Positions 5,856 through 26,145 of a stretch of 64,000 bases of DNA are shown piece after piece. The DNA is from Unio delphinus. Lineage: Eukaryota > Mollusca > Bivalvia > Unionida > Unionidae. The notes under the pieces were generated by a model. It saw only the letters and a program-made list of their open reading frames with translations, did not search any database and was not told where the DNA came from. Location: the NCBI GenBank assembly GCA_029339505.1, contig JAQISU010000210.1:10491501-10555500 (forward strand), read 5' to 3'. The translations under genes were made by a program, and so were the position numbers. How positions within the stretch are numbered: position 1 is the stretch's first letter; each line of letters opens with the position of its first letter.

Positions 5856-6281
5856 AGTAGTAATAGGGGGCACTATAGCCTCAATGGAAAATCCAGTCAA
5901 AAAGTGCTTGGGGCACTATAGCCTCAAGATTTATAGCCTCAAGGGAAAATCCAGTCAAAAAGGGCTTGGGGCACTATAGCCTCAAAACAGCTTGGGGCAC
6001 TATAGCCTCAAGGGAAATGGAACATGGGGGGTCTGTATAGCGTCAAGGGAAATTGAACATAGTGGGTCTATATAGCCTCAAGGGAAATGGAACATAGTGG
6101 GTCTATCTAGCCTCAAGGGAAATTGAACATAGTGGGTCTATATAGCCTCAAGGGAAATGGAACATAGTGGGCCTATCTAGCCTCAAGGGAAATATAACAT
6201 GGGAAATAAAACAAGGGAAAAAAAGGGTGGCAATGAAAGCTACTATCTTTTCGAGACTTATGAGTGGCCCTGAAAAGGGCC
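5856..6281 (+). repeat. Element 1 left terminal inverted repeat
   Basis: Matches 26106-26531 in reverse complement with no length difference over 426 bp. The outer part holds GGGGCACTATAGCCTCAA-type repeats. The inner part (about 6025-6195) is a tandem array of a roughly 35-bp unit containing ATAGCCTCAAGGGAAATGGA. The inner edge is exactly the histone-type stem-loop at 6266-6281. Confidence 0.95.
6266..6281 (-). terminator. Histone-type 3' stem-loop (gene at 6299)
   Basis: Read on the minus strand this is CCAAA-GGCCCTTTTCAGGGCC-AC: a 6-bp stem, 4-nt TTTC loop and the flanks of the animal histone mRNA stem-loop (consensus GGYYCTTTTCAGRRCC followed by ACCCA). It lies 17 nt after the stop codon. 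A purine-rich element (TCTCGAAAAGATAG, 6243-6256) follows at the spacing expected of a U7 snRNP downstream element. The predicted outcome is cleavage without polyadenylation. Confidence 0.8.
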
Positions 6282-6298
6282 TTTGGATACTTCTTCTT

Positions 6299-6880
6299 TT
6301 ATTTTCTGCCTTTGTTCCACCACCTTTTGATTTTACCAATAATTCCCTTCTTCTTCTTTTCGTCGGGAATCCAGTCAGGATGCCCCATAGCTCTAAACTT
6401 CTCTTGTATCTTTATCCAATTGTTATTTAATCTTTCAAAGTCCTCTTTCTTTTTTTGGTTTTCATTGTCCTTTCTTTCATTTCTCTCCTTACTCCAGTTA
6501 TCTTTTATCTTCTTCACTTCTTCTAATAGTTCCTTTCTCATCAGTTCTTCAGCTTTCTTGAGCGGGTCCAAACCCTTTTGGACATGGGGATACTCTGTCA
6601 AGATATTATCCAAAAAACACTTGACGTTTTCGACAATATCTATTACTTGCTTCAATGTCCCCACTCTAACATAGGGTGGATTAATGCAGCCTCGTAACTT
6701 TTTGGCTTCTTCTTCTAGCATTCCTCCTAAGAGCTCCCTGGCTATTTTCAGTCTTTTTGCAAAGTCCAAACTCTTCGCAATCTTCCATTTATGATGTAGT
6801 TTTTCCACTTCATATTCCCCGTCTAATATCCAGAAATAGCTGTGTCTTAAATTGTTGAATAAACTTGATGCTTTTGCCAT
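6299..6880 (-). CDS. Lysine-rich coiled-coil protein, unknown
   Basis: 193 aa, highly charged. An ordered N-terminal region (1-60) is followed by an aromatic-poor helical region and a long K/E coiled-coil (about 105-165), with a basic tail containing two tryptophans (KIKRWWNKGRK). No known family is recognised. A heptad-like EELMRKELLEEV stretch resembles EELFREEIQKE in the gene at 8593, so the two may be distant paralogues. The start follows a minus-strand TATA box at 6928-6936. It is the outermost gene on the left, transcribed toward the terminal repeat, and ends in a histone-type stem-loop rather than a poly(A) signal. Confidence 0.7.
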   Translation of the reverse strand: MAKASSLFNNLRHSYFWILDGEYEVEKLHHKWKIAKSLDFAKRLKIARELLGGMLEEEAKKLRGCINPPYVRVGTLKQVIDIVENVKCFLDNILTEYPHVQKGLDPLKKAEELMRKELLEEVKKIKDNWSKERNERKDNENQKKKEDFERLNNNWIKIQEKFRAMGHPDWIPDEKKKKGIIGKIKRWWNKGRK

Positions 6881-6927
6881 CTTCTATGGTTATTCCGTGG
6901 AATGGTTCTAATGTCAGTCACTTTGAG

Positions 6928-6967
6928 TATATATATCTTAAGCACGGACGTGAAAGTAAACACCCCC
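6928..6967 (-). promoter_or_regulatory. Promoter: TATA box plus shared upstream motif
   Basis: The minus strand carries GGGGGTGTTTACTTTCACGTCCGTGCTT directly upstream of a TATATATA box, about 50 nt before the ATG at 6880. The same module, GGGTGTTTTCCATCACGTC(C/T)GCGCTTG plus TATA, precedes the genes at 8180 and 8952. Confidence 0.7.
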
Positions 6968-6999
6968 TACATTCACTTGTCATATTAGATACTATCCAC

Positions 7000-7575
7000 A
7001 AACCCTATCATTTACTATCCAAAATCACACCCTATACTAACCACACACACGGGGAAGCAGCCAAAACACACCCTATCATATACTATCCAAAATCACACCC
7101 TATACTAACCACACACACGGGGAAGCAGCCAAAACAAACCATACTATATACTATCCAAAATCACACCCTATACTAACCACACACACGGGGAAGCAGCCAA
7201 AACAAACCCTACTATATACTATCCAAAATCACACCCTATACTAACCACACACACGGGGAAGCAGCCAAAACACACCCTCTCATATACTATCCAAAATCAC
7301 ACCCTATACTAACCACACACACGGGGAAGCAGCCAAAACACACCCTATCATTTACTATCCAAAATCACACCCTATACTAACCACACACGGGGAAGCAGAC
7401 AAAACAAACCCTACTATATACTATCCAAAATCACACCCTATACTAACCACACACACACGGGGAAGCAGCCAAAACACACCCTATCATATACTATCCAAAA
7501 TCACACCCTATACTAACCACACACACGGGGAAGCAGCCTAAACAAACCCTATTATATACTATCCAAAATTACACC
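7000..7575. repeat. 68-bp minisatellite
   Basis: About eight tandem copies of a roughly 68-bp unit containing ACTATCCAAAATCACACCCT and ACACGGGGAAGCAGCC. Copies differ by single bases and by the number of CA dinucleotides. It occupies the gap between the promoter of the 6880 gene and the 3' end of the 8180 gene. It could be an enhancer-like array or a replication slippage product; no coding function is supported. Confidence 0.9.
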
Positions 7576-7650
7576 ATATACCATCTAAATAGAGTCAGTG
7601 TTTATAATCACACTACTCCTCTCTCACACCCATTGGCAATTGACATAGTA

Positions 7651-7688
7651 TTTCTTTTCTTGTTATTTGGGTAGCCCTGAGAAGGACT
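7651..7688 (-). terminator. Histone-type stem-loop and downstream element (gene at 7716)
   Basis: The minus strand reads AGTCCTTCTCAGGGCT (7673-7688) immediately followed by ACCCA (7668-7672), then CAAGAAAAGAAA (7651-7662). The stem has one G-T pair. ACCCA and the CAAGAAA-type purine block are near-exact matches to the histone 3' consensus. The loop starts 27 nt beyond the stop codon. Confidence 0.85.
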
Positions 7689-7715
7689 GTTTTTAAAACT
7701 TCAAATTGCACCTGG

Positions 7716-8180
7716 TTAATGCTGGCATCTCCCAGGTCTAGCCCCACACACACATCTCCTACTCCAATCATTCTCCCAATTCACTCTTGTGATTGGGAGC
7801 GCAGAGGGAGAATGAGTGGCTTCACTATCCCAATCTTCTGTTTGAGGGATAGTGAAAGTCTCTTCATTTCTACCTCTATTCCGCAACCGTGGATGAGGCT
7901 GTGGTTGTTGCGGCTGAGGCAGTGGGGGCTGCGCCTGTAGTGCACGAACTGGTTCTGGTGAAGGTGTCCTCACTATAGGCTTGACTTCACTAGTTTGCCT
8001 CATCATGCGGTGAGGCAAAATTGACATTTTCATTTCCTTCTCCTCTTCTTTCTTTTTCCTCTCCTCCTCTTCTTTAATTCTGGTCTCTTCTTCTTCGGCC
8101 TCCATTGCCAGTTCGTCCAGGAGACGTCTAGCATTCTCCAGATGCAGTTGAAGTTCTCTTAATTTCTGTACTCTATTCAT
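7716..8180 (-). CDS. Glu-rich coiled-coil / proline-rich protein, unknown
   Basis: 154 aa. Residues 1-55 form an E/K-rich coiled coil; 70-110 are proline- and glutamine-rich; the C-terminus has a small cysteine cluster (RRCVCGARPGRC). The start was set at the ATG at 8180, because the upstream part of the open frame is the promoter itself: the TATATATAA box and the GGGTGTTTTCC motif lie in it. No family recognised. It shares promoter module and histone-type 3' end with its neighbours at 6299 and 8593, so the three look co-regulated. Confidence 0.65.
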   Translation of the reverse strand: MNRVQKLRELQLHLENARRLLDELAMEAEEEETRIKEEEERKKKEEEKEMKMSILPHRMMRQTSEVKPIVRTPSPEPVRALQAQPPLPQPQQPQPHPRLRNRGRNEETFTIPQTEDWDSEATHSPSALPITRVNWENDWSRRCVCGARPGRCQH

Positions 8181-8229
8181 CTTTGGTGTTGATGCGCCAA
8201 CGATGGGTAGCCAGACTGACGAGTGCTTT

Positions 8230-8271
8230 TTTATATATAGCACAAGCGCGGACGTGATGGAAAACACCCCC
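8230..8271 (-). promoter_or_regulatory. Promoter: TATA box plus shared upstream motif
   Basis: The minus strand reads GGGGGTGTTTTCCATCACGTC, then CGCGCTTG and CTATATATAA. This is the same arrangement as at 6928-6967 and 9007-9045. A partial extra copy of the motif (GGGGTGTTTTC...GTCCGCGTG) lies at 8321-8345 without an adjacent TATA box. Confidence 0.75.
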
Positions 8272-8514
8272 TAGATCCAAAAACTTACATTATCCCTATC
8301 ATTACCAAAAAAACAAAACACGCGGACTTAAAAGAAAACACCCCACACTTTTATACTTGACTCATATTAATTATACATTGAACAAGTTATTTTGAAAAAA
8401 TACGTTGTGCTTATAGACGCACTTCAAAACAAAAGTTAAAAGAGACAGTGATTATAGACTCACTTCTAATTTTTTTCTAACTTCCTCACATACCATAAGC
8501 AAATTGAATGATTA

Positions 8515-8552
8515 ATTCTTTTCGAGAATATTGGGTAGCCCTGAAAAGGGCT
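8515..8552 (-). terminator. Histone-type stem-loop and downstream element (gene at 8593)
   Basis: The minus strand reads AGCCCTTTTCAGGGCT (8537-8552), a perfect 6-bp stem with TTTC loop, followed by ACCCA (8532-8536) and CTCGAAAAGAAT (8515-8526). It lies 40 nt beyond the stop codon. Confidence 0.88.
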
Positions 8553-8592
8553 GTTTTTTGTGTTTGTGTGTACGAGGAAGGATGACAATCTT

Positions 8593-8952
8593 TTATCGTC
8601 TAAGATTGCGTCCTCGTTTGGCTACACGATAGGGTCTGCTTCTTCGGAAAGAGAAAGAGAACTCTTTTGTGTCCACACGACAGTCGACAAAACTTCTGTC
8701 TGGTTCCTGCTGATGTTGTTGCTGCTGCTGATGCTGTTCTCTCTGTTCTCTCTGCTGCTTTTGAAGTCGATACTTCTCAGTCCATTCTTCTTTCTCTTTT
8801 TGAATTTCCTCTCTGAAGAGTTCTTCTATGAGGTCTTCCGTTACTTGTAGCATTCTTACATTCTCAATCTCTTCAGGCTTTGGCATCAGATTGTGTCTGA
8901 TACGATGCAGAGTGACATAAGCTTCGTTCAGCTTAGCTAGTCTTGAGCACAT
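8593..8952 (-). CDS. Gln-rich coiled-coil protein, unknown
   Basis: 119 aa. Helical N-terminal half, an E/K coiled coil, then a poly-Q/QH stretch (about 70-88) and an arginine-rich C-terminus (RRSRPYRVAKRGRNLRR) that could bind nucleic acid or act as a nuclear signal. The start at 8952 is preferred because the TATA box (9007-9013) lies inside the longer open frame. No family recognised. Same promoter module and 3' end as the two genes to its left. Confidence 0.65.
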   Translation of the reverse strand: MCSRLAKLNEAYVTLHRIRHNLMPKPEEIENVRMLQVTEDLIEELFREEIQKEKEEWTEKYRLQKQQREQREQHQQQQQHQQEPDRSFVDCRVDTKEFSFSFRRSRPYRVAKRGRNLRR

Positions 8953-9006
8953 CTTCGTAGTAGGATGAGTCAAACAATGGATGGCCAGACTGGAGACTAC
9001 CCCTGC

Positions 9007-9045
9007 TTTATATGGTTCAAGCGCAGACGTGATGGAAAACACCCT
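9007..9045 (-). promoter_or_regulatory. Promoter: TATA box plus shared upstream motif
   Basis: The minus strand reads GGGTGTTTTCCATCACGTC, then TGCGCTTGAACC and ATATAAAG. It is nearly identical to the module upstream of the 8180 gene. Confidence 0.75.
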
Positions 9046-9173
9046 CTGCGGTTTAGGGTTTTGAAACGTTGGGATAGTTTGATGTGAGGGATAGAAAGAA
9101 AAGTCAAAGAGCATTTATATGAATACAAATGTAAAACAAACGACAGACGCATTGGTTTTCAAAACACAACATT

Positions 9174-9251
9174 TTTATTCAAATAACAAACATTATTTCA
9201 AAGAACAAACATTATTTCAAAGAACAAACATTTTTTCAAAGAACAAACATG
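9174..9251 (-). terminator. Poly(A) signal and AACAAACAT direct repeats after the late block
   Basis: AATAAA on the minus strand (9174-9179) lies about 100 nt downstream of the protease stop. Between them, 9186-9251 holds three tandem copies of a unit with ATTTCAAAGAACAAACAT. This marks a conventional polyadenylated 3' end for the virion gene block, in contrast to the stem-loops of the outer genes. Confidence 0.7.
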
Positions 9252-9275
9252 TTTTTCTTCCATAACACTAATACA

Positions 9276-9833
9276 TTATCTTTGACATGGTTGACAACGT
9301 TGTGAATTAAATTGAGATTTCCACTGTTGGAAGTCATTGGGCGATTGATGTACACTACGTTTCCTAGCTAAAGACAACAGATAGCCATAATGGTCACAAA
9401 ACCATCGATCTACTTTGTCATCGTTTCGAGACGAATGACGATCAAAATAAGTCACTAAATGTTCTAAAGAATATCCAAGACTGCGATGATGCAGATAATA
9501 GATACAATATTGTCCACACACCATAGAATCTGTGCTTTGTAATTTCACATTATTGAATCGTGTCGTCTGAGCATTTCTTCTCATAAAGTCAATGATATCA
9601 TCTTCGAAAGGAGGCAATCCATACGAATCAAAATACTCCGCACATCCCTCTTGAGGAAAGTAGACTGCTACCCAGTGAGTTCCTGGAAGATGACTGTCAT
9701 CTGTGTTGATGACATAAGCTTGATTCTCTTGAGGTTTGCGATGAGGTAGTTCATCTTTAGCACACACCACAGAATTCCAAGAAGCAGTGTACGAACTACG
9801 GTTCAAAAGATAATAAAGTTCCCAAGTATCCAT
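9276..9833 (-). CDS. PRO: Adenovirus-type cysteine protease
   Basis: 185 aa, the usual size of Polinton and adenovirus maturation proteases (C5 family). Visible catalytic residues are His in GTHWVAVYF (about 53), Asp in YFDSYGLPP (about 70) and Cys in SMVCGQYCIYYL (about 106). It is expected to process capsid and core precursors in the particle. It is the last gene of the minus-strand virion block, directly downstream of the genes at 9874 and 10377, and ends before an AATAAA. No break is seen. Confidence 0.95.
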   Translation of the reverse strand: MDTWELYYLLNRSSYTASWNSVVCAKDELPHRKPQENQAYVINTDDSHLPGTHWVAVYFPQEGCAEYFDSYGLPPFEDDIIDFMRRNAQTTRFNNVKLQSTDSMVCGQYCIYYLHHRSLGYSLEHLVTYFDRHSSRNDDKVDRWFCDHYGYLLSLARKRSVHQSPNDFQQWKSQFNSQRCQPCQR

Positions 9834-9873
9834 TTTTTGTTTTGTGTAGCCTTGTTTTTTTTCTCTCCTTTCT

Positions 9874-10371
9874 TCACAGGTGATGATAAGTCATCAATTC
9901 AATCCAGACTTTTTGTTTGAAACGGTCTGACAAGTAACTGATGGTTTGCTTCGTCTCTTTACTTTTGGCCAAGAGAGCTTCGATGCGATCGATTTCTCGA
10001 GCAAACAATGGAGGAGAGGAATGATCACGTAAGCCTTTATACCACTGAAGTAAAACGTCTTCTTCGGAGATGAGACTCCAAGCTTCGTTCAGATAATCAT
10101 CCAATTTTTCTTCTTGACTCATCATCATACATTTATCGTGTTGAATTTGACTGGGATGATCGATTTGACATCCATAACAATCTTTTTTAATCATGTCCCT
10201 CATTTTATCTTCCAAGTGTTGTGCAAAACAAGCCACTAATTGTTGTTCCTGTTCTGGCCATCTGGATTGCATGATCACTACTTCTTCTTTTTGGTCTTGA
10301 GGGTTTGCTTTTTCTGTAACCTCCCATTCCATGGATTCTCCACTATTCAAAGAAGGACAAGGGTCTTCCAT
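9874..10371 (-). CDS. Conserved Polinton protein with Cys/His motif
   Basis: 165 aa, acidic N-terminus. A central block reads CYGCQIDHPSQIQHDKCM (about 65-82), a CxxC-H-H-C pattern that looks metal-binding. I recall similar C-GC-HPSQ-H-C proteins beside capsid genes in other invertebrate Polintons, but cannot assign a function. It lies between MCP and protease with only 5-40 nt spacing, consistent with one transcript. Confidence 0.75.
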   Translation of the reverse strand: MEDPCPSLNSGESMEWEVTEKANPQDQKEEVVIMQSRWPEQEQQLVACFAQHLEDKMRDMIKKDCYGCQIDHPSQIQHDKCMMMSQEEKLDDYLNEAWSLISEEDVLLQWYKGLRDHSSPPLFAREIDRIEALLAKSKETKQTISYLSDRFKQKVWIELMTYHHL

Positions 10372-10376
10372 AATGT

Positions 10377-11717
10377 CTAATAGTCTAGAATGACTTCTCT
10401 CAAACTGTTGATTTCTATGGTATTATCGAATTCAGCATACAGAATGATATTCACCGTTTCGGGAAGAGGTGCTGCAAACTGAAGTTCCACACGCAGTTGC
10501 CCAGATTTTATAGGGTGGAAATGGCCCTCGTCGCTGCCTTGGTCTGGAGTGAAATCAAAAGCCCACAACGTGTAACCTCTTGCATAGTCGTCGTAGGAAA
10601 TACCGTGACTGGTGTTGGTTCCTAACTGTCCTGTGGCTTCGTACAGCGACAAGTACGACCTCAAGTAATTTTTCTGTTCGCCAAAGTCGGGTTCGAAGGG
10701 TCTGGTACACAAAGTTTTGCCATCGCGACTGACTTCAATTTTGGATACTCTGCAGTGCTTAAACTGGAAAGGATTTTCATCGTGGGCACCATTGAGGGCT
10801 GCATTGCTGACGATACCAATGAATAAACGTTTGGGTAACTGTCCTTGGAACAGATGATCTTCAATCTTAGATCGGAGTCCAGCGGCAATGGTGAAAGTTT
10901 TGACTTCCACGCGTCGTATCGGATACTTGGCTGTCGTTCTGCTCAAAGTGTGACTGATATCATTCCCCACTTTAGGTAACACTTCCACGCGACGTACGTA
11001 TAACCTGGCTTCTTGGATAATGGTTTTGTATTCGTTTGCATGAGCCATCAAATGGAAAGCAGTACTACTTCGATTCAGTCTCAAGCGAATATCTACTCCG
11101 TTCAGCAAATACTTCTCTTGAAACCACATGTCCAAATGCAAACGATCGAGCAGTTCTAAACTACGTTCCTGCAAAATTTTCTTTCGACGGTCGTTAAAAC
11201 CTTCATTGTGAGGATCGGCAGGAGCGCTGCCATCAGCAGCTGCTGCTACGGGCAAGGCTGTGTCGTTAAACTTATCTGCGGTGTCAGGTTTCCATACCAC
11301 GCAAGCATCTAGATGAGTGTTCTTGGCTTCTTTTCCGTACGTCAAGAGATTTTCGAGGTACGCTCGGTAAGGGTAAGTATCCATGCTACTGCTGATCAGT
11401 TTGTTATTCATGTACAAATTCACATCGCTGAACAAGGAATGCATGAAATTGTTGACAGGAGCTACTCTATCATTGGCTCCTGGATTGGTGTTGTCCGTTT
11501 TGGTTACTTTCACTTTCAAATACAAGTAACTGTTGTTGAGATCGATGTAATCTTCGGGTTGTCCTTTGATTTCAAACTCGATGGGAACTGAATCCGTCAA
11601 AGAGGAGACGGGATGAAATTCGACCCATTGAGCTTCTTGCATGGTCATCATCGTGGGTGGCATGGCAAAGAGATCCAGTTCCGACTTGGAACAGGCACAA
11701 GATTCTTGGTGCATCAT
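10377..11717 (-). CDS. MCP: Major capsid protein (double jelly-roll)
   Basis: About 446 aa from the ATG at 11717; the longer frame to 11756 has no ATG. It matches the Polinton MCP type often annotated as F54H12.2-like: YIDLNNSYLYLKVKV early, then VAPVNNFMHSLFSDV and YPYRAYLENLLTYG. The central region FQEKYLLNGVDIRLRLNRSS and the distal FQFKHCRVSKIEVSRDG also fit. The family forms the trimeric hexon-like capsomer. Neighbours are the pVI-like gene upstream and the HPSQ protein downstream. The frame is intact. Confidence 0.93.
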   Translation of the reverse strand: MMHQESCACSKSELDLFAMPPTMMTMQEAQWVEFHPVSSLTDSVPIEFEIKGQPEDYIDLNNSYLYLKVKVTKTDNTNPGANDRVAPVNNFMHSLFSDVNLYMNNKLISSSMDTYPYRAYLENLLTYGKEAKNTHLDACVVWKPDTADKFNDTALPVAAAADGSAPADPHNEGFNDRRKKILQERSLELLDRLHLDMWFQEKYLLNGVDIRLRLNRSSTAFHLMAHANEYKTIIQEARLYVRRVEVLPKVGNDISHTLSRTTAKYPIRRVEVKTFTIAAGLRSKIEDHLFQGQLPKRLFIGIVSNAALNGAHDENPFQFKHCRVSKIEVSRDGKTLCTRPFEPDFGEQKNYLRSYLSLYEATGQLGTNTSHGISYDDYARGYTLWAFDFTPDQGSDEGHFHPIKSGQLRVELQFAAPLPETVNIILYAEFDNTIEINSLREVILDY

Positions 11718-11745
11718 TTTCTCTTTAGGTTTTTTTTCTTCACTT

Positions 11746-12186
11746 TTAATAATCAAAAATGTCTAAGTCTCGAGCGGTTCTTTTTTTCTTTGTCTTTCGA
11801 ACTTTAGAGGTACGGAGACTTTTGAAAGGGTGTCTTCGTCGACGCTTTCTACCTTGTCCTTGCTGTGTCGACAGGGAAGTAGGAATGTCAGACTCGGTAC
11901 CGTTCAGGGCATTTATAGGACTTTCTCGTCGACCCAAAATCTCTTTACCCGTTTGAAGCAAGGCATTTTTGCCTGCTCTCAAAAAAGCTTCTTTAGGGTT
12001 TTGTTTGTCAATGAGAACATTGTAAAGAAAATCTTTGCCGTGAGTCAATGCGGCATCTTTTAAGGTGTGCAATCCTCGTGTCACCATTGATTTTAAAACA
12101 GGGACCACGGAACGAAAGGCTGATTTAAACATATCTCCTAAACCATGTCCTCGTTGTCGAGTGACTCCTTGGTACACAGGATACAT
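11746..12186 (-). CDS. Basic virion protein, adenovirus pVI/pX-like
   Basis: 146 aa starting MYPVYQGVTRQRGHGLGDMF, followed by a predicted amphipathic helix (FKSAFRSVVPVLKSMV) and a very basic C-terminal half (GRKRRRRHPFKSLRTSKVRKTKKKR). This layout (short YQG/RGHGLG head, amphipathic helix, basic tail) recurs next to MCP in Polintons and resembles adenovirus internal proteins. The likely role is a cement or membrane-lytic internal protein. It ends just before the MCP start. Confidence 0.75.
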   Translation of the reverse strand: MYPVYQGVTRQRGHGLGDMFKSAFRSVVPVLKSMVTRGLHTLKDAALTHGKDFLYNVLIDKQNPKEAFLRAGKNALLQTGKEILGRRESPINALNGTESDIPTSLSTQQGQGRKRRRRHPFKSLRTSKVRKTKKKRTARDLDIFDY

Positions 12187-12193
12187 CACTTTT

Positions 12194-13123
12194 TCAGTTG
12201 TTGGAGAATCGTTTTTGAAAATGGAGTTTCACTGTGACTTTCCCTTTGGTAAATGGAATATTTTGACCTAGTTCTCCTTTTATAGTAATGTTGACACTGT
12301 CGAAATACGACTTACTGACGGGTAAATAATGAGGATGCACAAATTCGCGGTGAACGTGATAGGTATTTCCACCTTCCTCGTCAGCGGTAGTAGTATCTAC
12401 TTTGAAAGGAATGACACGCAGTAACGGTACAGAGGTGTGTCCTACCACATTGTACTCCACCACATCGGAGTACACAAACATCAAATTGAGTCCTTGGTTC
12501 ATTTCTACAGGGGATCGAAAATATTTGGTAAAATCCAAGTTACTGGATATGCCTGGTATTTCTTTTTTGTTCGGGAGCATCTTGAGGTCTCCACCTAAGA
12601 TATCAAACAATTCAGGACAAAAGGTAATGGCTATTATTTTCTTCTCTGAAAATTTGATCATGAAGCGGCGAGCCACTTTAATGTACTCAAAGGTAACACT
12701 TTCTCTGATTTTGTCCAGGGGTTTACCAAACACAACATTGAACCTGCTTGCAATCGTAGTCACTAAATGCTGACCGCTAAAATAGTAGCCTGCAGGAATG
12801 GTCAACACATGAGTGGGCAGATGTTTAGTTGTGGATCCATCTGATTTCTTGTTGTCAATGCCAGTGATGCCTCGTTCATCTAAGGCTTGTTGCAATTGCT
12901 TGTCGTACACTTCAACTGTGAAAAAGTTTTGATTTTCGACGACGTTTTTGATTTGTGTCGGGTGTATTATTTCCACTAAAGCTGCTTCCCAGTGATCATC
13001 TTGATCCAAATGCATGGATTGAGGTAATTTAGACGTGTAACAACACAATGTGTTGTTAGGAAACACCTCCATGGAACTGTCACTGGGTAACGTTAAGTAA
13101 AATTGGTTAATAGTGTTGTTCAT
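12194..13123 (-). CDS. mCP: Minor capsid (penton-like) protein
   Basis: 309 aa. The N-terminus INQFYLTLPSDSSMEVFPNN followed by TSKLPQSMHLDQDDHWEAALVEI is the familiar opening of Polinton minor capsid proteins. HVLTIPAGYYFSGQHLVTTI matches their central IP-G-Y motif. The C-terminal FVHPHYLPVSKSYFDSVNITI fits the single jelly-roll penton. It overlaps the next gene upstream by 4 nt (ATGA-type junction at 13120-13123). Intact. Confidence 0.88.
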   Translation of the reverse strand: MNNTINQFYLTLPSDSSMEVFPNNTLCCYTSKLPQSMHLDQDDHWEAALVEIIHPTQIKNVVENQNFFTVEVYDKQLQQALDERGITGIDNKKSDGSTTKHLPTHVLTIPAGYYFSGQHLVTTIASRFNVVFGKPLDKIRESVTFEYIKVARRFMIKFSEKKIIAITFCPELFDILGGDLKMLPNKKEIPGISSNLDFTKYFRSPVEMNQGLNLMFVYSDVVEYNVVGHTSVPLLRVIPFKVDTTTADEEGGNTYHVHREFVHPHYLPVSKSYFDSVNITIKGELGQNIPFTKGKVTVKLHFQKRFSNN

Positions 13124-13539
13124 ATTTCCAATGTTCTTCTGTCCGAGGAGTCACTCGAGGTTAAAGGAGTATCTGAAAGAGGATTGTGATTGGAAGGGTG
13201 ACTGTCAGGAGAAGGACTAACGTTGGCCGCCAGACTCCCAATATTGTTACTGTTGTTCCCGTTGTAAGAGTATTTCAGGGAAGGATTGGGAAGAAGATAC
13301 CCGATGCAACTGCTGAGTAAAATGGTCCACAATTGTTTGTCTCCTTGTTGCAAACTCAAATTAGCAATGGCTGCACCAATGACACAATATACCACAAAGA
13401 TTTGACAGAAAAAAACGATTTGCGTTTTAGGGACACGTTCTCCACACCACACCCACAAGGGTTGCTTTTGTAAATCTTGCAGAGATGACGTGGGTGAAGG
13501 AGTAGTCACTGTGGTCGCTGAAGCTGTATTGAAGGGCAT
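13120..13539 (-). CDS. Two-pass membrane protein, conserved in Polintons
   Basis: 139 aa from the ATG at 13539. Two hydrophobic segments (about 39-60 IVFFCQIFVVYCVIGAAIANL and 70-85 LWTILLSSCIGYLLP) end in the conserved YLLPNPSLK signature. I associate that signature with Polinton proteins located between integrase and minor capsid. A Ser/Pro-rich tail follows. Probably a virion or assembly membrane protein; function unknown. Confidence 0.75.
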   Translation of the reverse strand: MPFNTASATTVTTPSPTSSLQDLQKQPLWVWCGERVPKTQIVFFCQIFVVYCVIGAAIANLSLQQGDKQLWTILLSSCIGYLLPNPSLKYSYNGNNSNNIGSLAANVSPSPDSHPSNHNPLSDTPLTSSDSSDRRTLEI

Positions 13540-18862: not shown

Positions 18863-18899
18863 GGTTGTTCTCTTTTATACTTCTTTTTTAGGTCAAAGA

Positions 18900-19217
18900 T
18901 TACAAGTGTAGATTCAACCCAGAATTAAACATAGAATTAAATTTGCTCCAAAAGCGAAAGTGATTAATATAACGTGTAATTTCGTCCCACTGCCATTCAG
19001 GGTAACGGTTAAGAAGGATCAAAGCATCTTCAGAGGTAAACGTAGTAAATTGGTAACAGAGCAAAAAAATACCCTTAATCCAGAGAAATCTAACACGTTG
19101 GTTAATTTTTGTCACTTGCCTCTTGTGAATTTCACGACACAAATGTTCTACAGTCACCCATTGAGATTTTTCTTTAGCAAGGCCTTGCCAAACGTCCTTG
19201 TAGATCTTCTCTTGCAA
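18900..19217 (-). CDS. Helical protein lacking an upstream ATG, unknown
   Basis: The frame is open from about 19300 to 18900 but has no ATG before the last few residues; 19217 is a TTG and the true start is unclear. Conserved-looking text LQGLP-type/ELQEKIYKDVWQGL could be an F-box-like helix (weak). A TATA box (GTATATAAACC, about 19256-19266) lies within the open frame. Either the ATG was lost, initiation is non-AUG, or a leader exon exists. Confidence 0.4.
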   Translation of the reverse strand: MQEKIYKDVWQGLAKEKSQWVTVEHLCREIHKRQVTKINQRVRFLWIKGIFLLCYQFTTFTSEDALILLNRYPEWQWDEITRYINHFRFWSKFNSMFNSGLNLHL

Positions 19218-19301
19218 TTCGTGTGGTAATCCTTGAATATAATGTTTTAGAGAGGGTTTATATACTGGTCTAGGTGTGTTCCACGACTTGGAGTAGTAGT
19301 G

Positions 19302-19967
19302 TCACTTCCAATCACTAGGTCCCACTAAAGGTAGGTATTGACAATTCGGAGACCATCGAGCATGTTCCAAGTAAGCGGAATCGTTATGTTCCCACTCGTA
19401 AATGGATACACCACAACTGAAACACTTGACTTTATCCCCTTCGCCCAAGTAGAAAAATCCAGCTCTGGCTAATTCTTCAGGAGTTGGTCCAGGCAGATAT
19501 TTTGGCCATTTATCTTTGAAGGTTTGGAATCGACTTTTAAAGTGGCAGTATTCAGGTAAACTCGTCGGGAACGAATATTCGACTCTCCTCACTTCTGTTC
19601 GATGTAGGTACGGTGAAATTCCTAGGAGTCCACGATAACGTGTCGCACCGCTTTCGCATCCCTCAGGTTTGACACGCACAGCATCACTTTCCACGGTAGA
19701 TATAGGGGTAGTAGTCATAGCAACGTTCCCACGATATCCAGCTGAATCGCTAACGTCACAGCGTCTGGCATCACTACAATCGTAGGGTTCACCATCGCAC
19801 TCTGTAACGCAATTACAGTGCATACCACAAGGACACTTACAGTTTCCTTCCGGGCATCTTCCGTTGCAATGCATGGGTCTTATCCATCCAGTACTTTTCA
19901 CACTCGGGAAAAGTACATTTGTTTTACAATCCCCAAATTTGAATGATGTCCGTTTAAATGGATTCAT
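19302..19967 (-). CDS. BIR-domain protein (IAP-like) with Cys-rich head
   Basis: 221 aa from the ATG at 19967; the longer frame begins without ATG. Residues about 34-70 hold a dense cysteine cluster of unknown fold. Residues 144-212 form one BIR domain: FKDKWP, GFFYLGEGDKVKCFSCG and EHARWSPNC, with zinc ligands C182, C185, H202 and C209. BIR proteins of the IAP family restrain caspases or act in immune signalling; baculoviruses and some adintoviruses carry captured copies. No RING finger follows. TATA box at 20025-20037, within the end of the PolB gene. Confidence 0.9.
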   Translation of the reverse strand: MNPFKRTSFKFGDCKTNVLFPSVKSTGWIRPMHCNGRCPEGNCKCPCGMHCNCVTECDGEPYDCSDARRCDVSDSAGYRGNVAMTTTPISTVESDAVRVKPEGCESGATRYRGLLGISPYLHRTEVRRVEYSFPTSLPEYCHFKSRFQTFKDKWPKYLPGPTPEELARAGFFYLGEGDKVKCFSCGVSIYEWEHNDSAYLEHARWSPNCQYLPLVGPSDWK

Positions 19968-20002
19968 CTTCTTTTCGCTGGGTCGTTGTAGTGACAAATG
20001 AA

Positions 20003-23000
20003 TTATTGATCGTGGACGATATCCCTTTTTATATGCTGCCCAATTTCGACGTGACCGTACGGTAGAGTGAAGTGATTGGCAAGTCGTACTCTCTTTTGGT
20101 ACACGATCTGGTAGACTTTTTCCAAAGGTCGGCTAACAATTTGGTGTGTGGGTAAACGGACAATCTTGTGCGGTTCGTGGGTAGTCACTTGAAACGTTTC
20201 ATCCTGTCCCGACTGCAAGGCATCTTGTAGTACGTCAAAGTTCACCACTTGACTGGTGCGATAATTAAGAGTCAATCCTTTCACTTTACATTCGGTGTGC
20301 ATTTTTCCTTGGGGGTCTCGGTATTCGTAGCCGTAATTTTTAGGACCGCCACTTGCAAAACTTAGAATCTTGTCGTCGGGATGTTCATCGGTCCAGGCTC
20401 CTAAACGGTCTCCTTCGATGACAGGGTTACACTGGTTCGGTCGGTGAATGTAGATGCAACTGTCTGTGTCAAAATACAACACGCGATCTCCTAACAGTTC
20501 TAACACTTCGTACAATTTTAAGAGAGCGTGGGCTGTCACGTAAGCCGCAATGATGACATTTCCAAATTTGTCGGCTTCTACAAAGTCTAGTTCTTCTTCG
20601 TAATTGACTAAGATCAAGTCCTCACGAATGACGTCCACGTGTTTGATGACTTTGGTTGGGTCGTGAATCATCTGGAAGTAGCGAGACGGATCGGACAAAT
20701 ACTCCGTCTTGGGTAAAGACGGACGTTGTGCCATTTTACCCCACAAACAATTGAGCATCACTTTGGCAAACGACCGCCTTCCTTCGTTTTTCTCGATGTG
20801 GTCTAAAGTGATACCTTCCTGCTCCCGATATTTTTCTTTGAATATCTTTTGGTCTTCGGGAGTGTGACACCAGGAAGGATAGCCACTAGCTTCTTGTTTT
20901 AGTTTTAAAAAGGTATCCACGTAGTCTGCAAAAATACCTTTCTGTCTCTCGTCGCCCTTGCAGTATTGTTGTGTTTTGGGAAAGTGGTAAATTTCGTACA
21001 CTTCTAACAGTTGATATCCCAGGTCCAGAGCTTTAAACAATTCCACGCTCACCCACGTTCCTGTCAAGGCACGTTCTTCCTGAGTGTGATGACAAGGTTG
21101 GTCTTGGTTGCACGTTTCGGCACATGTGCGACACAAAGGAAACATCAGTTTTCCTTGGCAATGGTGAGGTAAAACGGGATGGTACAAGTCTGTGGGTGGT
21201 AAGACTTTACACTTGATCAATCCTTCGTACTGTCGAATGTGGTCCAAATCAATGTGTTCTGTCATCAATTCTGGATGCCCTACGGGAAAGTGACAATATT
21301 TGCACACGTAAGGATACAACGAACACACGTCCAAGTATTTGATTTCTTCTCCCTTCTCCTCGTCCGCTTGGTACAGTAAACAGGTAGCATTCGTTCGTCC
21401 TCCGTACAAACTATCCCGAGGGTTCAGGGGGTCCACCCACTTGTAACTTTCTACGATGCGTTTAAACTCGGGATCGGTTTTCAAACGCTGATCGTACTCG
21501 TGTTCCCACATTTCCACCACCTGGTATCCTTGCTGTTCTAACTTCAAACGTCGCTGACACGTGGTCTGGTACAAGTCTTCCATGGTTCGTTGTAAAAACT
21601 GATTTTTGGTGTTACGCTGAGGGTAGCATAGGGGACATCCGTGAAATAAACATCCGTTAAACTCGTACACGATCTGAGGGTTTTCTAAGTCCCAACCATC
21701 TACCGAATACGTTCCGATGGTCTTTTCGCCTCCTCCGTTGCGAGCGTGTTGGATCCATTTGTCTTCCTTGTCGCACAAGTAATGGAGCCAGCGTAGGGCT
21801 TTAAGCGAGTATTGACGTTTGACAAAATTTGTCGTTTGAGGACTGATGACCGCTAGAGTATTTTCGGGCATAAAGCGTTTTCGGTACACTAAGGAACATG
21901 CTTTGGCAATGGTACAAGCTTCTTTCAAAGGATCGATCCCTCCGTATTCCATGAACAGTTCTCGAAATTTTCCACAACAGCGTCGTAAAATGTCCACGTC
22001 AGATCGACAATACTTTAACATTTCTTCTTGAAAGTCAAAGGGGTCCGAGGCGTGAGTCTGGTACCAAGCATGGAAAGCTTCTCGTTGTTCGGTGCGCATG
22101 TTGTCGGGGTCGTAGTCGTCAACCTCAGGCAAATGGGGTAGAATGGCATGTTGATTGGCTTCGGTATTAAAAAAGTGTGGAAAATAACCTTTGGCCATTT
22201 CTGTCATTCCAAACGTTTTAGGCATGCGACTCAAAGGCATGGCCAAGTAACACATCGAATCTTTAAACTGTACTTGTCCTACTTGCATAGAAATGATTTT
22301 GGCTCCGTTCAAAGTCACTTGAGGCCGTTCGGTACTTTGTTCCGCATAGTATCTGAGCAGAAATTGCCCATCGTATCCCGAGAAATTGTGAGCCATGACC
22401 GTTGCATGGCAATGACACTCTCCGTAACGTTCGATGTCTTCTGGACTCCACGTTTCGTCGATGGGATTAAGGATCCATTGGGCAAAATTGACCAAGGTGT
22501 TTGACCCTCGAAAGATTTGTTCACGTCCTCCAGGAATCTTGCTGCAGTAAGGGCAATGACTAAAGATAGGTTCTTGGATGCACTGCTCGCACGCACGGTG
22601 AGCCACGCAGAAATTAGGAATGTGAATACCAGTTTCTTGCATGTATTCGAAATCAAAACAGATAAAATTCCCTTTCTTCTGGGTATCTTTTGGTTGGGGT
22701 TGATATTTTTGAATGAAGCATTCGTGCTCCAAGTCCACAATTTGGCGACAAATGTGACATCGTTTCTTCCCTCGACAAACGTGTAACTTAACACTATTGG
22801 TACGTATGCCTTGTCCACAAGTAGGGCACAATCTCAGAAGCTGACAAGCATTTCTCTGCTGTGAACCTTGCATCTTCAAATGTTTTTGGTAACAGGTAAG
22901 ACTGACAAAAGTGCGCTGACACACAGGGCAATGCACTCGTAATTGTCCTTGGTCCAGACAAGGTTGAGAGGCCAAACATCCCTCACATTTTGATCCACAA

Positions 23001-24073
23001 TGCTTGTGTTGTTCTCGATTGTTATAACCATAGTCACATTTTTCACAGTAGTAACTGAATTTCAGAAATCCAGTGATACTGGTAATGGTATCAAAATGAC
23101 CATCGTGATGATAGACGTGAATGTATTTTCGGTCTTTGAAATCGTGGCCTCGAAACAAAAGAGGTCCACGCACTTCTTGAGGGTGTACTTTCAAAGTGTA
23201 ATGTGGGGACAAGACGTCTTGCAACTTTTGCATTTCTGGAATGCCACAAGGAGTGTCTTTGGATATCCCCGCTTGCTGTAACAGAAGTTCTGCTTCACTT
23301 CGTTGTTTGGCTCGGTCCGATTGTCGAATAGTTTTCCAGGCTCTTTTCCATTCTGTCGTGTCGTTCTTGTTGGCATACGTTCGTCCCACGACGACAGCAC
23401 GGGCTAAACACATCTGGTCTTGAGGATTTTTAATTTGGACGAGGCTTCGCTTCATGCTGCGAAGGCTGTCGACCAATAATACTTTTTTGCGTCCTGTCCC
23501 CTGGGGAAGAGACACGTGGGTTATAAACAGTGTGGCTTTTCCATCGTCAATGTGAAACTTGTCGTTGGATTGTTGCACATGTTGAATTTTGTCGATGACT
23601 TTGGAAGGTTTTAATTCTGATGGGCTAGTAAACTCGATCCAAACGGGAGACTTCAAATTATCGTGATGAATAGAAAGTCTCAAGCGATCGTCTTCTTTGG
23701 CTTGACATTGCTGTTTCAGTGCAGTTAACACAGAATCCCACACCTCAGTAATGAACCCTTCTGTATTCTCCAAAGGTACATTGGCCTTGAAATCTTTAAA
23801 CTTTACGGCATACGTGTAAGCCGTTGTTCTAAATTTTCGAGAGGAACGCTTTTCTGTCTCTCGAATGTAATAGTAATTTTCAGGGTTTACTAAGGGTGGT
23901 GCACTTTGCTTGGACGTCGATTATCTGGGTGTGGATTCGGGCTCACTCATGTCATCTTCAAAATCACTGGCATGAATTTGAGCCAAGACTTCAGCTACTG
24001 TGTTAGGCGATACATTACGTTTCTGTCTCTTACTGTCTGTTCCTTTCTCCACAGCATGATGTGGTCTTTTCAT
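20003..24073 (-). pseudogene. PolB: Protein-primed family B DNA polymerase, one in-frame stop
   Basis: The frame runs from the ATG at 24073 (basic, NLS-like KRPHHAVEKGTDSKRQKR) to 20003, about 1356 codons. A single TAA (23921-23923) sits at codon 51; the 1256-codon stretch after 23773 has no ATG at its edge, which supports the longer gene. Visible parts are Cys/His zinc-finger clusters, exonuclease motifs FDFEYMQ and HNFSGYDGQFLL, and polymerase motifs A (DVCSLYPYV), B (KVMLNCLWGKMAQR) and C (YFDTDSCIYI). It replicates the linear element from a terminal protein. Broken only at the N-terminus. Confidence 0.93.
20025..20037 (-). promoter_or_regulatory. TATA box of the BIR gene
   Basis: CATATAAAAAGGG on the minus strand, about 60 nt upstream of the ATG at 19967 and inside the last codons of PolB. 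Confidence 0.55.
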
Positions 24074-24099
24074 CTTGTCTGCAAAAAGTCAAATGACTA

Positions 24100-24160
24100 C
24101 CTTTTAAAGACCATAACCCCTATATATTCATGTTCGATCCGTGCATATATATATAAAGGG
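24100..24160. promoter_or_regulatory. Divergent promoter between PolB and zinc-knuckle gene
   Basis: The minus strand has TATATAGGGG and TTTAAAAGG upstream of the PolB ATG (24073). The plus strand has CATATATATATAAAGGG (about 24144-24160) some 50 nt upstream of the ATG at 24211. Confidence 0.6.
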
Positions 24161-24210
24161 TTAGTGTCTAACGGTTCAGTATTCCTTTCACTCTCACATT
24201 GACCAGAACG

Positions 24211-24669
24211 ATGGAAGAACCTACACAAGTGGAACTTCTCATTAGAGCTTTACGTGGGGTCATACGAAAGTTTTCGTCAGACCAGCCGACAGCCTACTCT
24301 CCCTCCTTTCGAGATAAAAGTCAAGATACTTGCTATATCTGTAAGAAGTGAGGACATTGGGCTACAGAATGTTCAGATCGTAACAAAAATAAAAAAGGCT
24401 ACAATAGAGACAAAAGTCAAGATACCTGTTATTATTGTAAAGAGAAAGGACATTGGTCTCCAAACTGCCCTAAGAAACAACAGGAACAGGAGGAGGAGGA
24501 GGAGGAGAAGGAGGAGGAGGAAAGAAATTCTGAACAGGAGGAGGAAGAGGTACCCTCCCCCAAGGAAGAACTCCGTCACGTTCACAAGAAAAGAAGACGA
24601 AACGAAAGTGAAGAGGAAGAAAAAGAAAAAGCTGTGACAGTAAAGAAAATGAAAAAACAGAAAGAGTGA
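24211..24669 (+). pseudogene. CCHC zinc-knuckle protein with in-frame TGA
   Basis: 153 codons. Two zinc knuckles of the CX2CX4HX4C type: the first (codons about 41-54) has a TGA at codon 47 (24349-24351), between the second Cys and the His; the second (CYYCKEKGHWSPNC, about 73-86) is intact. A poly-Glu stretch and a basic C-terminus (HKKRRRNESEEEE, KKMKKQK) follow. Knuckles of this kind bind single-stranded nucleic acid. It is one of two plus-strand genes of Element 1 and ends before AATAAA at 24752. Confidence 0.8.
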
Positions 24670-24751
24670 AACAGAAGAAAACCTATGAACTTTTTTAAAG
24701 TGGTCTTGTGTTATGTTATGTTGTGATTTTGAATTGTGACGTTTGTACTAG

Positions 24752-24757
24752 AATAAA
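24752..24757 (+). terminator. Poly(A) signal of the zinc-knuckle gene
   Basis: AATAAA 83 nt after the stop codon. No histone-type stem-loop is present here. Confidence 0.6.
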
Positions 24758-24906
24758 CTAAAGAGAAAAAACGTAAGTGTCTCTTGGTTTTGATTTGATA
24801 GTATAATTACCTACACTCACACATTCATTCACTCACACGTACATCATGGGTTTTTAAAAAATAAAGGACTTTTGAGTTTTCATTGAAATAGGCAATTGAC
24901 ATAGTA

Positions 24907-24945
24907 TTTCTTTTCGAAATAATTGGAGTGGTCCTGAAAAGGACC
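24907..24945 (-). terminator. Histone-type stem-loop and downstream element (gene at 24979)
   Basis: The minus strand reads GGTCCTTTTCAGGACC (24930-24945), a perfect 6-bp stem with TTTC loop, followed by ACTCC and ATTTCGAAAAGAAA (24907-24920). It starts 33 nt after the stop codon. The sequence beyond it, AAATACTATGTCAATTGCC, is repeated after the stem-loop at 7673. Confidence 0.85.
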
Positions 24946-24978
24946 GTTGGTGTTTTGTGTGTTTAAAACAAAACAAAC

Positions 24979-25626
24979 TCAGAAACGGGATGAAATCCTC
25001 TTGAGCTGTCTTAAGCCTTTGCCACGGCCAAGGCCTACTTCGGGACTGGTGGTTCCTGTCAATGATTTGGTAGAAATCACTAACGGTGGTAAGGTAGACG
25101 TAGTCACAGAGAGATCGGGTTGTTTCGCTCGAGAAGGTCTTTTTCTCTTCGGTCGTGATAAAGAAGTCTGATACATTTGTTTCAGACTCCTTAACTCAGC
25201 TAAAATATCTAAAAGTACCGTCGTAACCGTTTGATTTTCACTATTTTCTTTCTGTCCTTGGTCTTCATTCTTCTCCGTTGCTGCTGCTGTTGCTACTGTT
25301 TCTTCCTGGTGTTTTCTTCTTGCTTCTTCTTCTTCCTGCTGTTGCATAAGAAAAGCTTGTTCTTCTACTTTCTGTTGTTGTAAAAATCGCTCCAATGCTT
25401 CTTTTTGTCTTTGTTTAAAATCATCGACGTGTCCATAAGAAGATACAGAAGGCAACGAAGGTTCCGGAATAAATTCTTGCGATGTTAAAAAATCCACAAT
25501 ATCCCAGTTAAAATCAACTTCTTCTGGATGTAGATTTGTCATGACTTTAGTAGTCACTGTTGGTCCATGACTTGCTGTCTCTACTCCTGTCTCACTCCAA
25601 TTCATTGTCTTCTTAGGGTCCGCCAT
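24979..25626 (-). CDS. Acidic/Gln-rich coiled-coil protein with basic tail, unknown
   Basis: 215 aa from the ATG at 25626. The 5'-extended frame to 25767 is rejected because the TATA box (25675-25683) lies inside it. Features are an acidic N-terminal segment (HPEEVDFNWDIVDFL), a Q/E coiled coil (about 72-115), a leucine-rich helix (LLDILAELRSLKQMY) and a nuclear-signal-like RPKRKRPSRAK. This layout could suit a transcriptional regulator, but no family is recognised. It carries a histone-type 3' end like the left-end genes. Confidence 0.65.
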   Translation of the reverse strand: MADPKKTMNWSETGVETASHGPTVTTKVMTNLHPEEVDFNWDIVDFLTSQEFIPEPSLPSVSSYGHVDDFKQRQKEALERFLQQQKVEEQAFLMQQQEEEEARRKHQEETVATAAATEKNEDQGQKENSENQTVTTVLLDILAELRSLKQMYQTSLSRPKRKRPSRAKQPDLSVTTSTLPPLVISTKSLTGTTSPEVGLGRGKGLRQLKRISSRF

Positions 25627-25671
25627 GATTGACAACTCTCTTGAATCGATTGACTGCGCACAGGCGCTAGT

Positions 25672-25803
25672 ACCTCTATATAGAAAAGGTGACGTCACAG
25701 ACTGCTCCCTTCCGATTGGATGGCTGTGTCTGACTTTTGTAACGCACGTTTGGATTGGTGGATACACTCAATCCGTTTCAATCCGCTCTTCCCCTATAAA
25801 TAA
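25672..25803. promoter_or_regulatory. Bidirectional promoter with CRE and CCAAT boxes
   Basis: Minus-strand TATA box (TCTATATAG, 25675-25683), then a perfect CRE palindrome TGACGTCA (25690-25697). Two inverted CCAAT boxes follow (ATTGG near 25715 and 25754). A plus-strand TATA box (CTATAAATAA, 25794-25803) completes it. It drives the genes at 25626 (-) and 25845 (+). CRE and CCAAT elements are typical host Pol II promoter parts. Confidence 0.7.
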
Positions 25804-25844
25804 CCGCAGTACACGGCATTCGATTCACTGTTTCTCATCACAAG

Positions 25845-26078
25845 ATGTGGACTAATGTTGAATCGTCAACCCTTGTGTCAAGTATGCTGTTTAGGACTGA
25901 CATACCCATGTATGTCAGATCATCATGGAGTGTCATTCATAGGACGGAGACAGCCTATTGGAAGAGAAGAGTCTATGTGGAAAGACAAGGTTGCTTGAAG
26001 AGAGTTCTCTTCTATGGACCCACAGTAAGGAGAAGTTTAAGGAAGAGAAGAAGATCTGTGAGATGTCCTCTGTGTTAA
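25845..26078 (+). CDS. Small Arg-rich protein, unknown
   Basis: 77 aa with an arginine-rich C-terminal half (RRSLRKRRRSVRCPLC). The ATG lies about 45 nt after a plus-strand TATA box. It is the outermost right-hand gene, transcribed toward the terminal repeat, and its mRNA would end in the histone-type stem-loop at 26106-26121. No family recognised. Confidence 0.6.
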   Translation: MWTNVESSTLVSSMLFRTDIPMYVRSSWSVIHRTETAYWKRRVYVERQGCLKRVLFYGPTVRRSLRKRRRSVRCPLC

Positions 26079-26105
26079 CAAGACAACGTTAACATTACAC
26101 ATAAC

Positions 26106-26145
26106 GGCCCTTTTCAGGGCCACTCATAAGTCTCGAAAAGATAGT
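26106..26145 (+). terminator. Histone-type stem-loop and downstream element (gene at 25845)
   Basis: The plus strand reads AACGGCCCTTTTCAGGGCCACTC, stem-loop 26106-26121, with TCTCGAAAAGATAG at 26131-26144. It is the mirror copy of the left-end signal and forms the inner edge of the right terminal repeat, 27 nt after the stop codon. Confidence 0.8.

What the first reader, a model, noticed from the sequence alone, without database searches (positions are those of the whole stretch)
6243..26145. Five Element 1 genes end in histone-type 3' stem-loops instead of poly(A) signals
Seen: five genes near the two ends of Element 1 (stops at 6299, 7716, 8593, 24979, 26078) are each followed after 17-40 nt by a 6-bp-stem, 4-nt-loop hairpin. 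Sequences are GGCCCTTTTCAGGGCC (twice), AGTCCTTCTCAGGGCT, AGCCCTTTTCAGGGCT and GGTCCTTTTCAGGACC. Each is followed by ACCCA or ACTC and then a (T)CGAAAAGA(A/T)A or CAAGAAAAGAAA block. Known: this is the SLBP stem-loop and U7 downstream element of replication-dependent histone mRNAs. Stem pairs co-vary between genes while the loop and flank stay fixed. The minus-strand virion block and the zinc-knuckle gene end with AATAAA instead. Inference: the element uses the host histone 3'-end machinery to tie a set of outer genes to S phase, which I have not seen described for Polintons.
Basis: partly seen in the sequence, partly recalled or inferred. Interest (0 to 1): 0.93.

Follow-up and report, generated by a model that had tools for sequence, protein, structure and literature searches.

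The report
Histone-type mRNA ends on Polinton genes
A virus-like mobile element in an animal genome, probably a mollusc, carries behind five of its own non-histone genes the same stem-loop and downstream signal that the host's histone genes use to end their messages without a poly(A) tail, so it probably borrows the histone mRNA machinery.

Summary
Rfam RF00032 (histone 3' stem-loop) hits the five named places and nowhere else in the 64-kb window; four pass the gathering score, the fifth (7673-7688) scores 25.8 bits. Two of the five are the two copies of one terminal inverted repeat, so four hairpins are independent. Each lies 17-40 nt behind a stop codon, sense strand, with GAAAAGA 13-14 nt further on; 300 shuffles gave no such pair. 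The host's own H2A/H1/H3/H4/H2B array uses the same kind of stem, two of them letter-identical, and the same downstream element at the same spacing; the host encodes SLBP. Copies sampled by protein match alone keep the unit: 20 of 20 for the 154-aa gene, 19 of 20 for the 215-aa gene. None of the five proteins matches a histone. Best reading: a young, high-copy Polinton ends its outer genes through the host SLBP/U7 route, giving mRNAs without poly(A). S-phase timing is inferred, no RNA was seen, and host U7 snRNA was not identified. My paper searches found no precedent.

The parts
5856..6284 (.). Left terminal inverted repeat of element 1; its inner edge is the stem-loop unit
   Evidence: 429 nt, 1 mismatch to the right arm
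26103..26531 (.). Right terminal inverted repeat of element 1
5850..5855 (.). 6-bp target-site duplication CTCTGG, left
26532..26537 (.). 6-bp target-site duplication CTCTGG, right
6299..6880 (-). p193, 193-aa gene of unknown function, helical model
6266..6281 (-). Histone-type stem-loop GGCCCTTTTCAGGGCC (TIR copy) behind p193
   Evidence: RF00032 37.0 bits
6246..6252 (-). HDE core GAAAAGA, 13 nt after the hairpin
7716..8180 (-). p154, 154-aa gene of unknown function
7673..7688 (-). Histone-type stem-loop AGTCCTTCTCAGGGCT behind p154
   Evidence: RF00032 25.8 bits, below gathering score; 20 of 20 sampled copies keep a paired hairpin
7653..7659 (-). HDE core GAAAAGA, 13 nt after the hairpin
8593..9114 (-). 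p173, 173-aa ORF of unknown function (start codon uncertain)
8537..8552 (-). Histone-type stem-loop AGCCCTTTTCAGGGCT behind p173
   Evidence: RF00032 34.9 bits
8517..8523 (-). HDE core GAAAAGA, 13 nt after the hairpin
24979..25626 (-). p215, 215-aa gene of unknown function
24930..24945 (-). Histone-type stem-loop GGTCCTTTTCAGGACC behind p215, identical to the host H1 stem-loop
   Evidence: RF00032 35.3 bits; host H1
24909..24915 (-). HDE core GAAAAGA, 14 nt after the hairpin
25845..26078 (+). p77, 77-aa ORF with a basic C-terminus
26106..26121 (+). Histone-type stem-loop GGCCCTTTTCAGGGCC (TIR copy) behind p77, identical to the host H2B stem-loop
   Evidence: RF00032 34.6 bits; host H2B
26135..26141 (+). 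HDE core GAAAAGA, 13 nt after the hairpin

Best explanation
Element 1 is a young, high-copy Polinton/Maverick. Five of its outer, non-histone genes carry host-type histone mRNA 3' ends: an SLBP-type stem-loop, an ACC/ACT flank, and a GAAAAGA histone downstream element 13-14 nt further on. The pre-mRNAs are most likely bound by host SLBP, cut between hairpin and GAAAAGA by the U7 snRNP, and exported and translated without a poly(A) tail, like replication-dependent histone mRNAs. Because one unit is the inner edge of the TIR, it ends the outermost gene at both termini. The virion block and the zinc-knuckle ORF are followed by AATAAA, so the element appears to run two classes of 3' end; the histone-type class would be favoured when SLBP and U7 are active (S phase, early embryo, germ line). 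Shown: the sequence units, their match to the host's histone 3' ends, host SLBP, and retention in sampled copies. Inferred: processing, lack of poly(A), and timing.
For: RF00032 at all five places and nowhere else in the window. Position and strand behind five stop codons, no AATAAA/ATTAAA in the next 250 nt. 0 of 300 shuffles with a stem-loop plus GAAAAGA. Host H2A/H1/H3/H4/H2B array: 5 of 5 genes with the same type of stem and GAAAAGA (GAAAAAGA in H2A) at 13-14 nt; H1 and H2B stems letter-identical to element stems. Host SLBP domain in two exons. 19 of 20 p215 copies and 20 of 20 p154 copies, chosen by protein match only, keep a fully paired hairpin and GAAAAGA at the same offset. Older versus young copies: hairpin differs at 2 of 112 (p154) and 4 of 64 (p215) sites, upstream flank at 31 of 168 and 13 of 96, spacer at 32 of 91 and 15 of 52, downstream at 39 of 266 and 19 of 152 (comparisons are not independent).
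Against: No RNA evidence. U7 snRNA not identified: RF00066 gave one match below cut-off and the pattern search mostly repeats. The p154 hairpin of the window scores below the gathering score, close to a chance site found in a viral contig (24.6 bits). One AATAAA overlaps the p193 stop codon. Older copies have often lost the non-TIR hairpins: p154 fully paired in 10 of 15, p215 in 4 of 10, and the L007/L016 lineage shows none behind p215. The sampled young copies are near-identical, so their retention says little about selection. p173 and TIR hairpins were not sampled in copies chosen by protein. No E2F consensus upstream. No relative outside this genome could be read.
Confidence: 0.86

Rival explanations
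1. Dual use: the histone-type end is only an optional or cell-cycle-dependent end, and much of the mRNA is polyadenylated at weak or distant sites, as reported for a subset of histone H2B genes (PMC3661734, abstract start seen in the listing).
For: AATAAA overlapping the p193 stop codon; a search of only 250 nt after each stop leaves distant signals open.
Against: No AATAAA or ATTAAA within 250 nt after any of the five stops; hairpin and GAAAAGA kept together in 39 of 40 sampled copies.
Confidence: 0.08
2. Relics: the 3' ends were captured from host histone genes and are carried along without function.
For: Two stems are letter-identical to host H1 and H2B stems; parts of the p154 and p215 3' regions are shared; older copies decay.
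Against: Four independent units, each in the right place and strand; stems differ by compensatory pairs; hairpins are more alike than their flanks between older and young copies; no histone reading frame in the five genes.
Confidence: 0.03
3. The hairpins act in DNA, for example in terminal replication or transposition of the element.
For: One unit forms the inner edge of both TIRs.
Against: Three of the four independent units are outside the TIR; each faces the gene it follows; loop, flanks and GAAAAGA spacing copy the host histone RNA signal.
Confidence: 0.02

Closest known systems
Replication-dependent histone mRNA 3' end (SLBP stem-loop plus HDE/U7 snRNP; Rfam RF00032)
   Same: Stem, loop, flanks, GAAAAGA core, spacing and distance from the stop codon as in the host's own histone array
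   Different: The genes are not histones and sit in a dispersed mobile element; processing not shown
Polinton/Maverick elements (adintovirus-like)
   Same: TIRs, 6-bp target-site duplication, protein-primed type PolB, integrase with chromodomain
   Different: Histone-type 3' ends on outer genes; a text search of PMC8097293 on vertebrate Mavericks finds neither 'histone' nor 'stem-loop'
Histone H4 gene of bracoviruses
   Same: A virus-related element that touches the host histone supply (PMC12819152, passage)
   Different: There a histone protein gene was captured; here only the 3'-end signal is used, on non-histone genes
SLBP binding to the SARS-CoV-2 frameshift RNA (PMC12166091, listing)
   Same: A virus RNA said to use host SLBP
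   Different: There translation frameshifting, not an mRNA 3' end; I saw only the start of the abstract

Membership tests
Histone 3' stem-loop (RF00032) | Covariance score at or above the gathering score | tested here: met
   4 of 5 sites pass; the p154 site has 25.8 of 34 bits
Histone 3' stem-loop (RF00032) | Purine-rich downstream element (HDE) at the host's spacing | tested here: met
   GAAAAGA at 13-14 nt in 5 of 5 element sites and 5 of 5 host histone genes
Histone 3' stem-loop (RF00032) | Pairing of the HDE with host U7 snRNA | tested here: inconclusive
   U7 not identified; L105 is an unproven candidate
Histone 3' stem-loop (RF00032) | mRNA ends after the stem-loop without poly(A) | not testable with these tools
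   No RNA data
Replication-dependent histone genes | Encodes a histone | tested here: not met
   No Pfam family above cut-off for the five proteins
Polinton/Maverick | TIRs and 6-bp target-site duplication | tested here: met
   5856-6284 / 26103-26531, CTCTGG on both sides
Polinton/Maverick | PolB and RVE-type integrase | tested here: met
   PF03175 E 9.4e-43; PF00665 E 1.5e-12 with chromodomain
Polinton/Maverick | Capsid, adenain-like protease and packaging ATPase genes | tested here: inconclusive
   Protease PF00770 E 0.02 and A32 PF04665 E 0.0086, both below cut-off; ORF 10377-11717 has 1241 homologues, 13 of the 120 listed named F54H12.2-like; that this name marks the Polinton capsid protein is recalled

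The most novel reading that the evidence does not exclude
A lineage of animal DNA mobile elements or viruses has put a set of its own non-histone genes under SLBP/U7 control, making the first known non-histone mRNAs that end by the histone pathway and coupling one gene class of a Polinton to host DNA replication, with a second, poly(A) class for virion genes.
Probability: 0.75. Interest if true: 0.93.

Novelty: new variant of a known kind. Interest (0 to 1): 0.87.

Why it matters
[quoted passage not shown] A high-copy Polinton with host-matched histone 3' ends on unrelated genes would break that rule, show how a mobile element may time gene expression to S phase, and give natural non-histone substrates for dissecting SLBP and U7. 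It also means that poly(A)-selected RNA-seq would miss these genes and could make such elements look silent.

Tried and rejected
Relatives in IMG/VR with PolB, MCP, an MCP alignment and a p193 alignment: none. Hairpin patterns over IMG/VR: none, and 3 stretches for hairpin half plus GAAAAGA, of which two (same sequence) score 24.6 bits for RF00032 and the third nothing; I take them as chance products of scanning 2.9 million contigs. Upstream motifs: no E2F consensus; a partial TTGGCGC before p154; CCAAT, CRE-like and TATA motifs seen, not tested for enrichment. AF2 model of p193: helical; 534 PDB matches at E <= 10, none at E <= 0.001. U7: 14 of 18 fetched pattern hits belong to one repeat family; L105 is left as an unproven candidate, without a clear shared promoter with U2 genes by eye. 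Of the p154 HDE column (7 of 49 differing) is affected by gap placement and is not used; p215 HDE differs at 1 of 28.
Full report
WHAT IS THERE. Whole-window cmscan against 4227 Rfam families finds the histone 3' stem-loop model RF00032 at 6240-6286 (-), 24905-24950 (-), 8511-8557 (-) and 26101-26147 (+), at 37.0, 35.3, 34.9 and 34.6 bits (gathering score 34), and at 7649-7693 (-) with 25.8 bits (E 0.0057 for the whole-library search); there is no other RF00032 match at E <= 10. The hairpins start 17, 27, 40, 33 and 27 nt behind the stop codons of p193, p154, p173, p215 and p77, on the sense strand, and no AATAAA or ATTAAA follows within 250 nt. One AATAAA overlaps the p193 stop codon (6298-6303), which leaves room for an alternative poly(A) end of that gene. 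One search also looked at nine other minus-strand ORFs of element 1 and the zinc-knuckle ORF: none of the ten has a hairpin; AATAAA follows the protease ORF at +96, ORF 18049 at +11 and the zinc-knuckle ORF at +82; ATTAAA follows ORF 10377 at +185 and ORF 17576 at 0; five have neither.

NOT CHANCE. A loose stem-loop regex gives 7 sites in the window, 5 with GAAAAGA at 11-16 nt; 300 dinucleotide shuffles average 0.54 stem-loops and have none with GAAAAGA. The 16-mer pattern with up to 2 mismatches has 9 matches against 1.94 expected, and its five exact matches are the five sites.

INDEPENDENCE. Two of the five are one sequence: the TIR runs 5856-6284 and 26103-26531 (429 nt, one mismatch) with a 6-bp target-site duplication CTCTGG on both sides, and the hairpin is its inner edge. 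So four independent hairpins exist. Between them stem pair 1 is G-C or A-U, and pair 3 is C-G, U-A or U-G.

THE HOST'S OWN HISTONE ENDS. The host genome (2.5 Gb, 1246 contigs) holds a tandem array on C15 with H2A, H1, H3, H4 and H2B. Its hairpins are GGCCCTTTTAAGGGCC (H2A), GGTCCTTTTCAGGACC (H1), GGCCCTTTTTAGGGCC (H3, H4) and GGCCCTTTTCAGGGCC (H2B). The H1 and H2B stem-loops are letter-identical to the p215 and TIR hairpins. GAAAAGA (GAAAAAGA in H2A) starts 13-14 nt after the hairpin in 5 of 5 host genes, as in the element. The host has two exons of an SLBP RNA-binding domain on C166 (59.5 and 38.5 bits). Species-named relatives of the host H1 and of ORF 10377 among the 120 rows listed in each are molluscs, apart from one bacterial-bin row in each; the host species is not known to me.

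COPIES FOUND THROUGH THE HAIRPIN. RF00032 over the host genome gave 74 matches (75 candidates scored of 434,796, so a lower bound). I held DNA for 72 of the 74 (not C15:21581 nor C86:7251201). Sixty-four lie in loci similar to element 1 outside the masked hairpin, 5 in the histone array, 1 at a damaged H2B copy beside an element fragment (L042), and 2 in loci without detected element similarity (L009, which resembles the L042 H2B 3' region by eye, and L040). These copies cannot show retention of the hairpin by which they were found.

COPIES FOUND BY PROTEIN ALONE. Both searches reached their limit of 150 scored matches: p215 97-100% identical, 6 of 150 with an internal stop; p154 95-100%, 3 of 150 with stops (my count; 5367 and 5258 first-look candidates; the window's own copy is in each list). 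From each list I took 20 of 150 at roughly even steps. p215: 19 of 20 keep a fully paired hairpin with GAAAAGA at +14 (16 with U-A and 3 with U-G at pair 3); L087 has lost it. p154: 20 of 20 keep a fully paired hairpin with GAAAAGA at +13, 19 of them with C-G where the window copy and one other have U-G. These copies are young, so this shows that the active family carries the units, not how long selection has acted. The p173 and TIR hairpins were not sampled this way.

OLDER COPIES. In older loci the non-TIR hairpins decay: p154 fully paired in 10 of 15, p215 in 4 of 10 (L012 dropped because its row was its TIR hairpin; L007 and L016 show none). Against a young copy, 7 older p154 copies (of 15) differ at 2 of 112 hairpin, 31 of 168 upstream, 32 of 91 spacer and 39 of 266 downstream sites; 4 older p215 copies (of 10) at 4 of 64, 13 of 96, 15 of 52 and 19 of 152. 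I chose copies with recognisable hairpins and the pairs are not independent, so this is weak evidence of constraint. In a plain alignment of all rows the hairpin is only slightly more alike than its surroundings for p215 (0.68 against 0.54 and 0.45) and not more than the downstream flank for p154 (0.865 against 0.89). TIR hairpins of other copies show C-G, U-G and, in L036, U-A at pair 4; these were found through the model.

MECHANISM. Established knowledge (PMC7026596, passages): SLBP binds the stem-loop, U7 snRNA pairs with the HDE, CPSF73 cuts between them. The element presents the full host-style substrate behind uninterrupted non-histone ORFs, so I expect hairpin-ended mRNAs without poly(A). 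Timing by SLBP and U7 activity is inference. The weakest link is U7: RF00066 gave one match below cut-off (27.5 bits, E 0.70, 65 of 695,180 candidates scored). A pattern of anti-HDE plus Sm site had 275 hits against 179 for the reversed control; of 18 fetched, 14 belong to one repeat family and one (L105) is followed by a hairpin, but the Rfam model does not recognise it and I see no clear shared promoter with three U2 loci.

WHAT THE GENES ARE. None of the five matches a Pfam family above its cut-off. p193 has 10 homologues at 47-85% identity, none with more than a 'hypothetical protein' name, and an all-helical AF2 model (mean pLDDT 78) without a PDB match at E <= 0.001.

LITERATURE. No held paper has both 'histone stem-loop' and 'Polinton'. 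In the other searches, judging by the titles and abstract starts listed (20 rows or fewer each), I saw no paper that describes histone-type 3' ends on genes of a mobile element or virus; the nearest is SLBP acting on a SARS-CoV-2 frameshift RNA (PMC12166091, listing). Most subscription papers are not held. PMC7026596 and PMC12819152 state that histone mRNAs are the only eukaryotic mRNAs, or animal protein-coding transcripts, not polyadenylated (passages). PMC8097293 on vertebrate Mavericks has 0 occurrences of 'histone' and 'stem-loop' (word search). The main adintovirus paper was not held.

VERDICT. A real, host-matched set of histone-type 3' ends on a Polinton's non-histone genes; function very likely, S-phase coupling plausible, RNA proof missing.

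Noticed in passing
5400-5855 and 26538-27089: Element 1 is inserted in the reading frame of a host seven-transmembrane receptor gene (minus strand); with one copy of the 6-bp duplication the two flanks give an uninterrupted frame across the site.
   Followed up: partly
37639-52592 and 55640-63781: A second, different Polinton-like element with 283-nt TIRs, an integrase and a 1307-aa protein with a helicase-type AAA domain, followed by a large inverted partial copy of it; neither has a histone-type stem-loop.
   Followed up: no
7635-7660 and 24890-24915: The stretch just behind the HDE core is nearly the same behind p154 and p215, as if 3' ends were exchanged between genes of the element; older p154 copies have a different stretch there.
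   Followed up: partly
6930-7590: Tandem array of about 68-nt units between p193 and p154.
   Followed up: no
6950-6990 and 8240-8340: Shared upstream block GGGGTGTTT plus CACGTCCG plus TATA before p193 and p154, absent before the other genes examined.
   Followed up: no
25626-25845: Divergent promoter region between p215 and p77 with CCAAT boxes, a CRE-like site and TATA boxes, recalling histone promoters; not tested further.
   Followed up: no
19302-19967: The element encodes a BIR (inhibitor of apoptosis) domain protein, PF00653 E 2e-23.
   Followed up: no
24172-24669: The zinc-knuckle ORF on the + strand has an in-frame TGA between two CCHC-like stretches.
   Followed up: no
L042 about 1970-2266: Damaged host H2B copy with a histone-type stem-loop beside an element fragment on C244.
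   Followed up: no
L097-L104 and L106-L111: A dispersed host repeat family carries TCTTTTCTAAATTTGTCT, which looks like a U7 anti-HDE plus Sm site but has other surroundings.
   Followed up: partly
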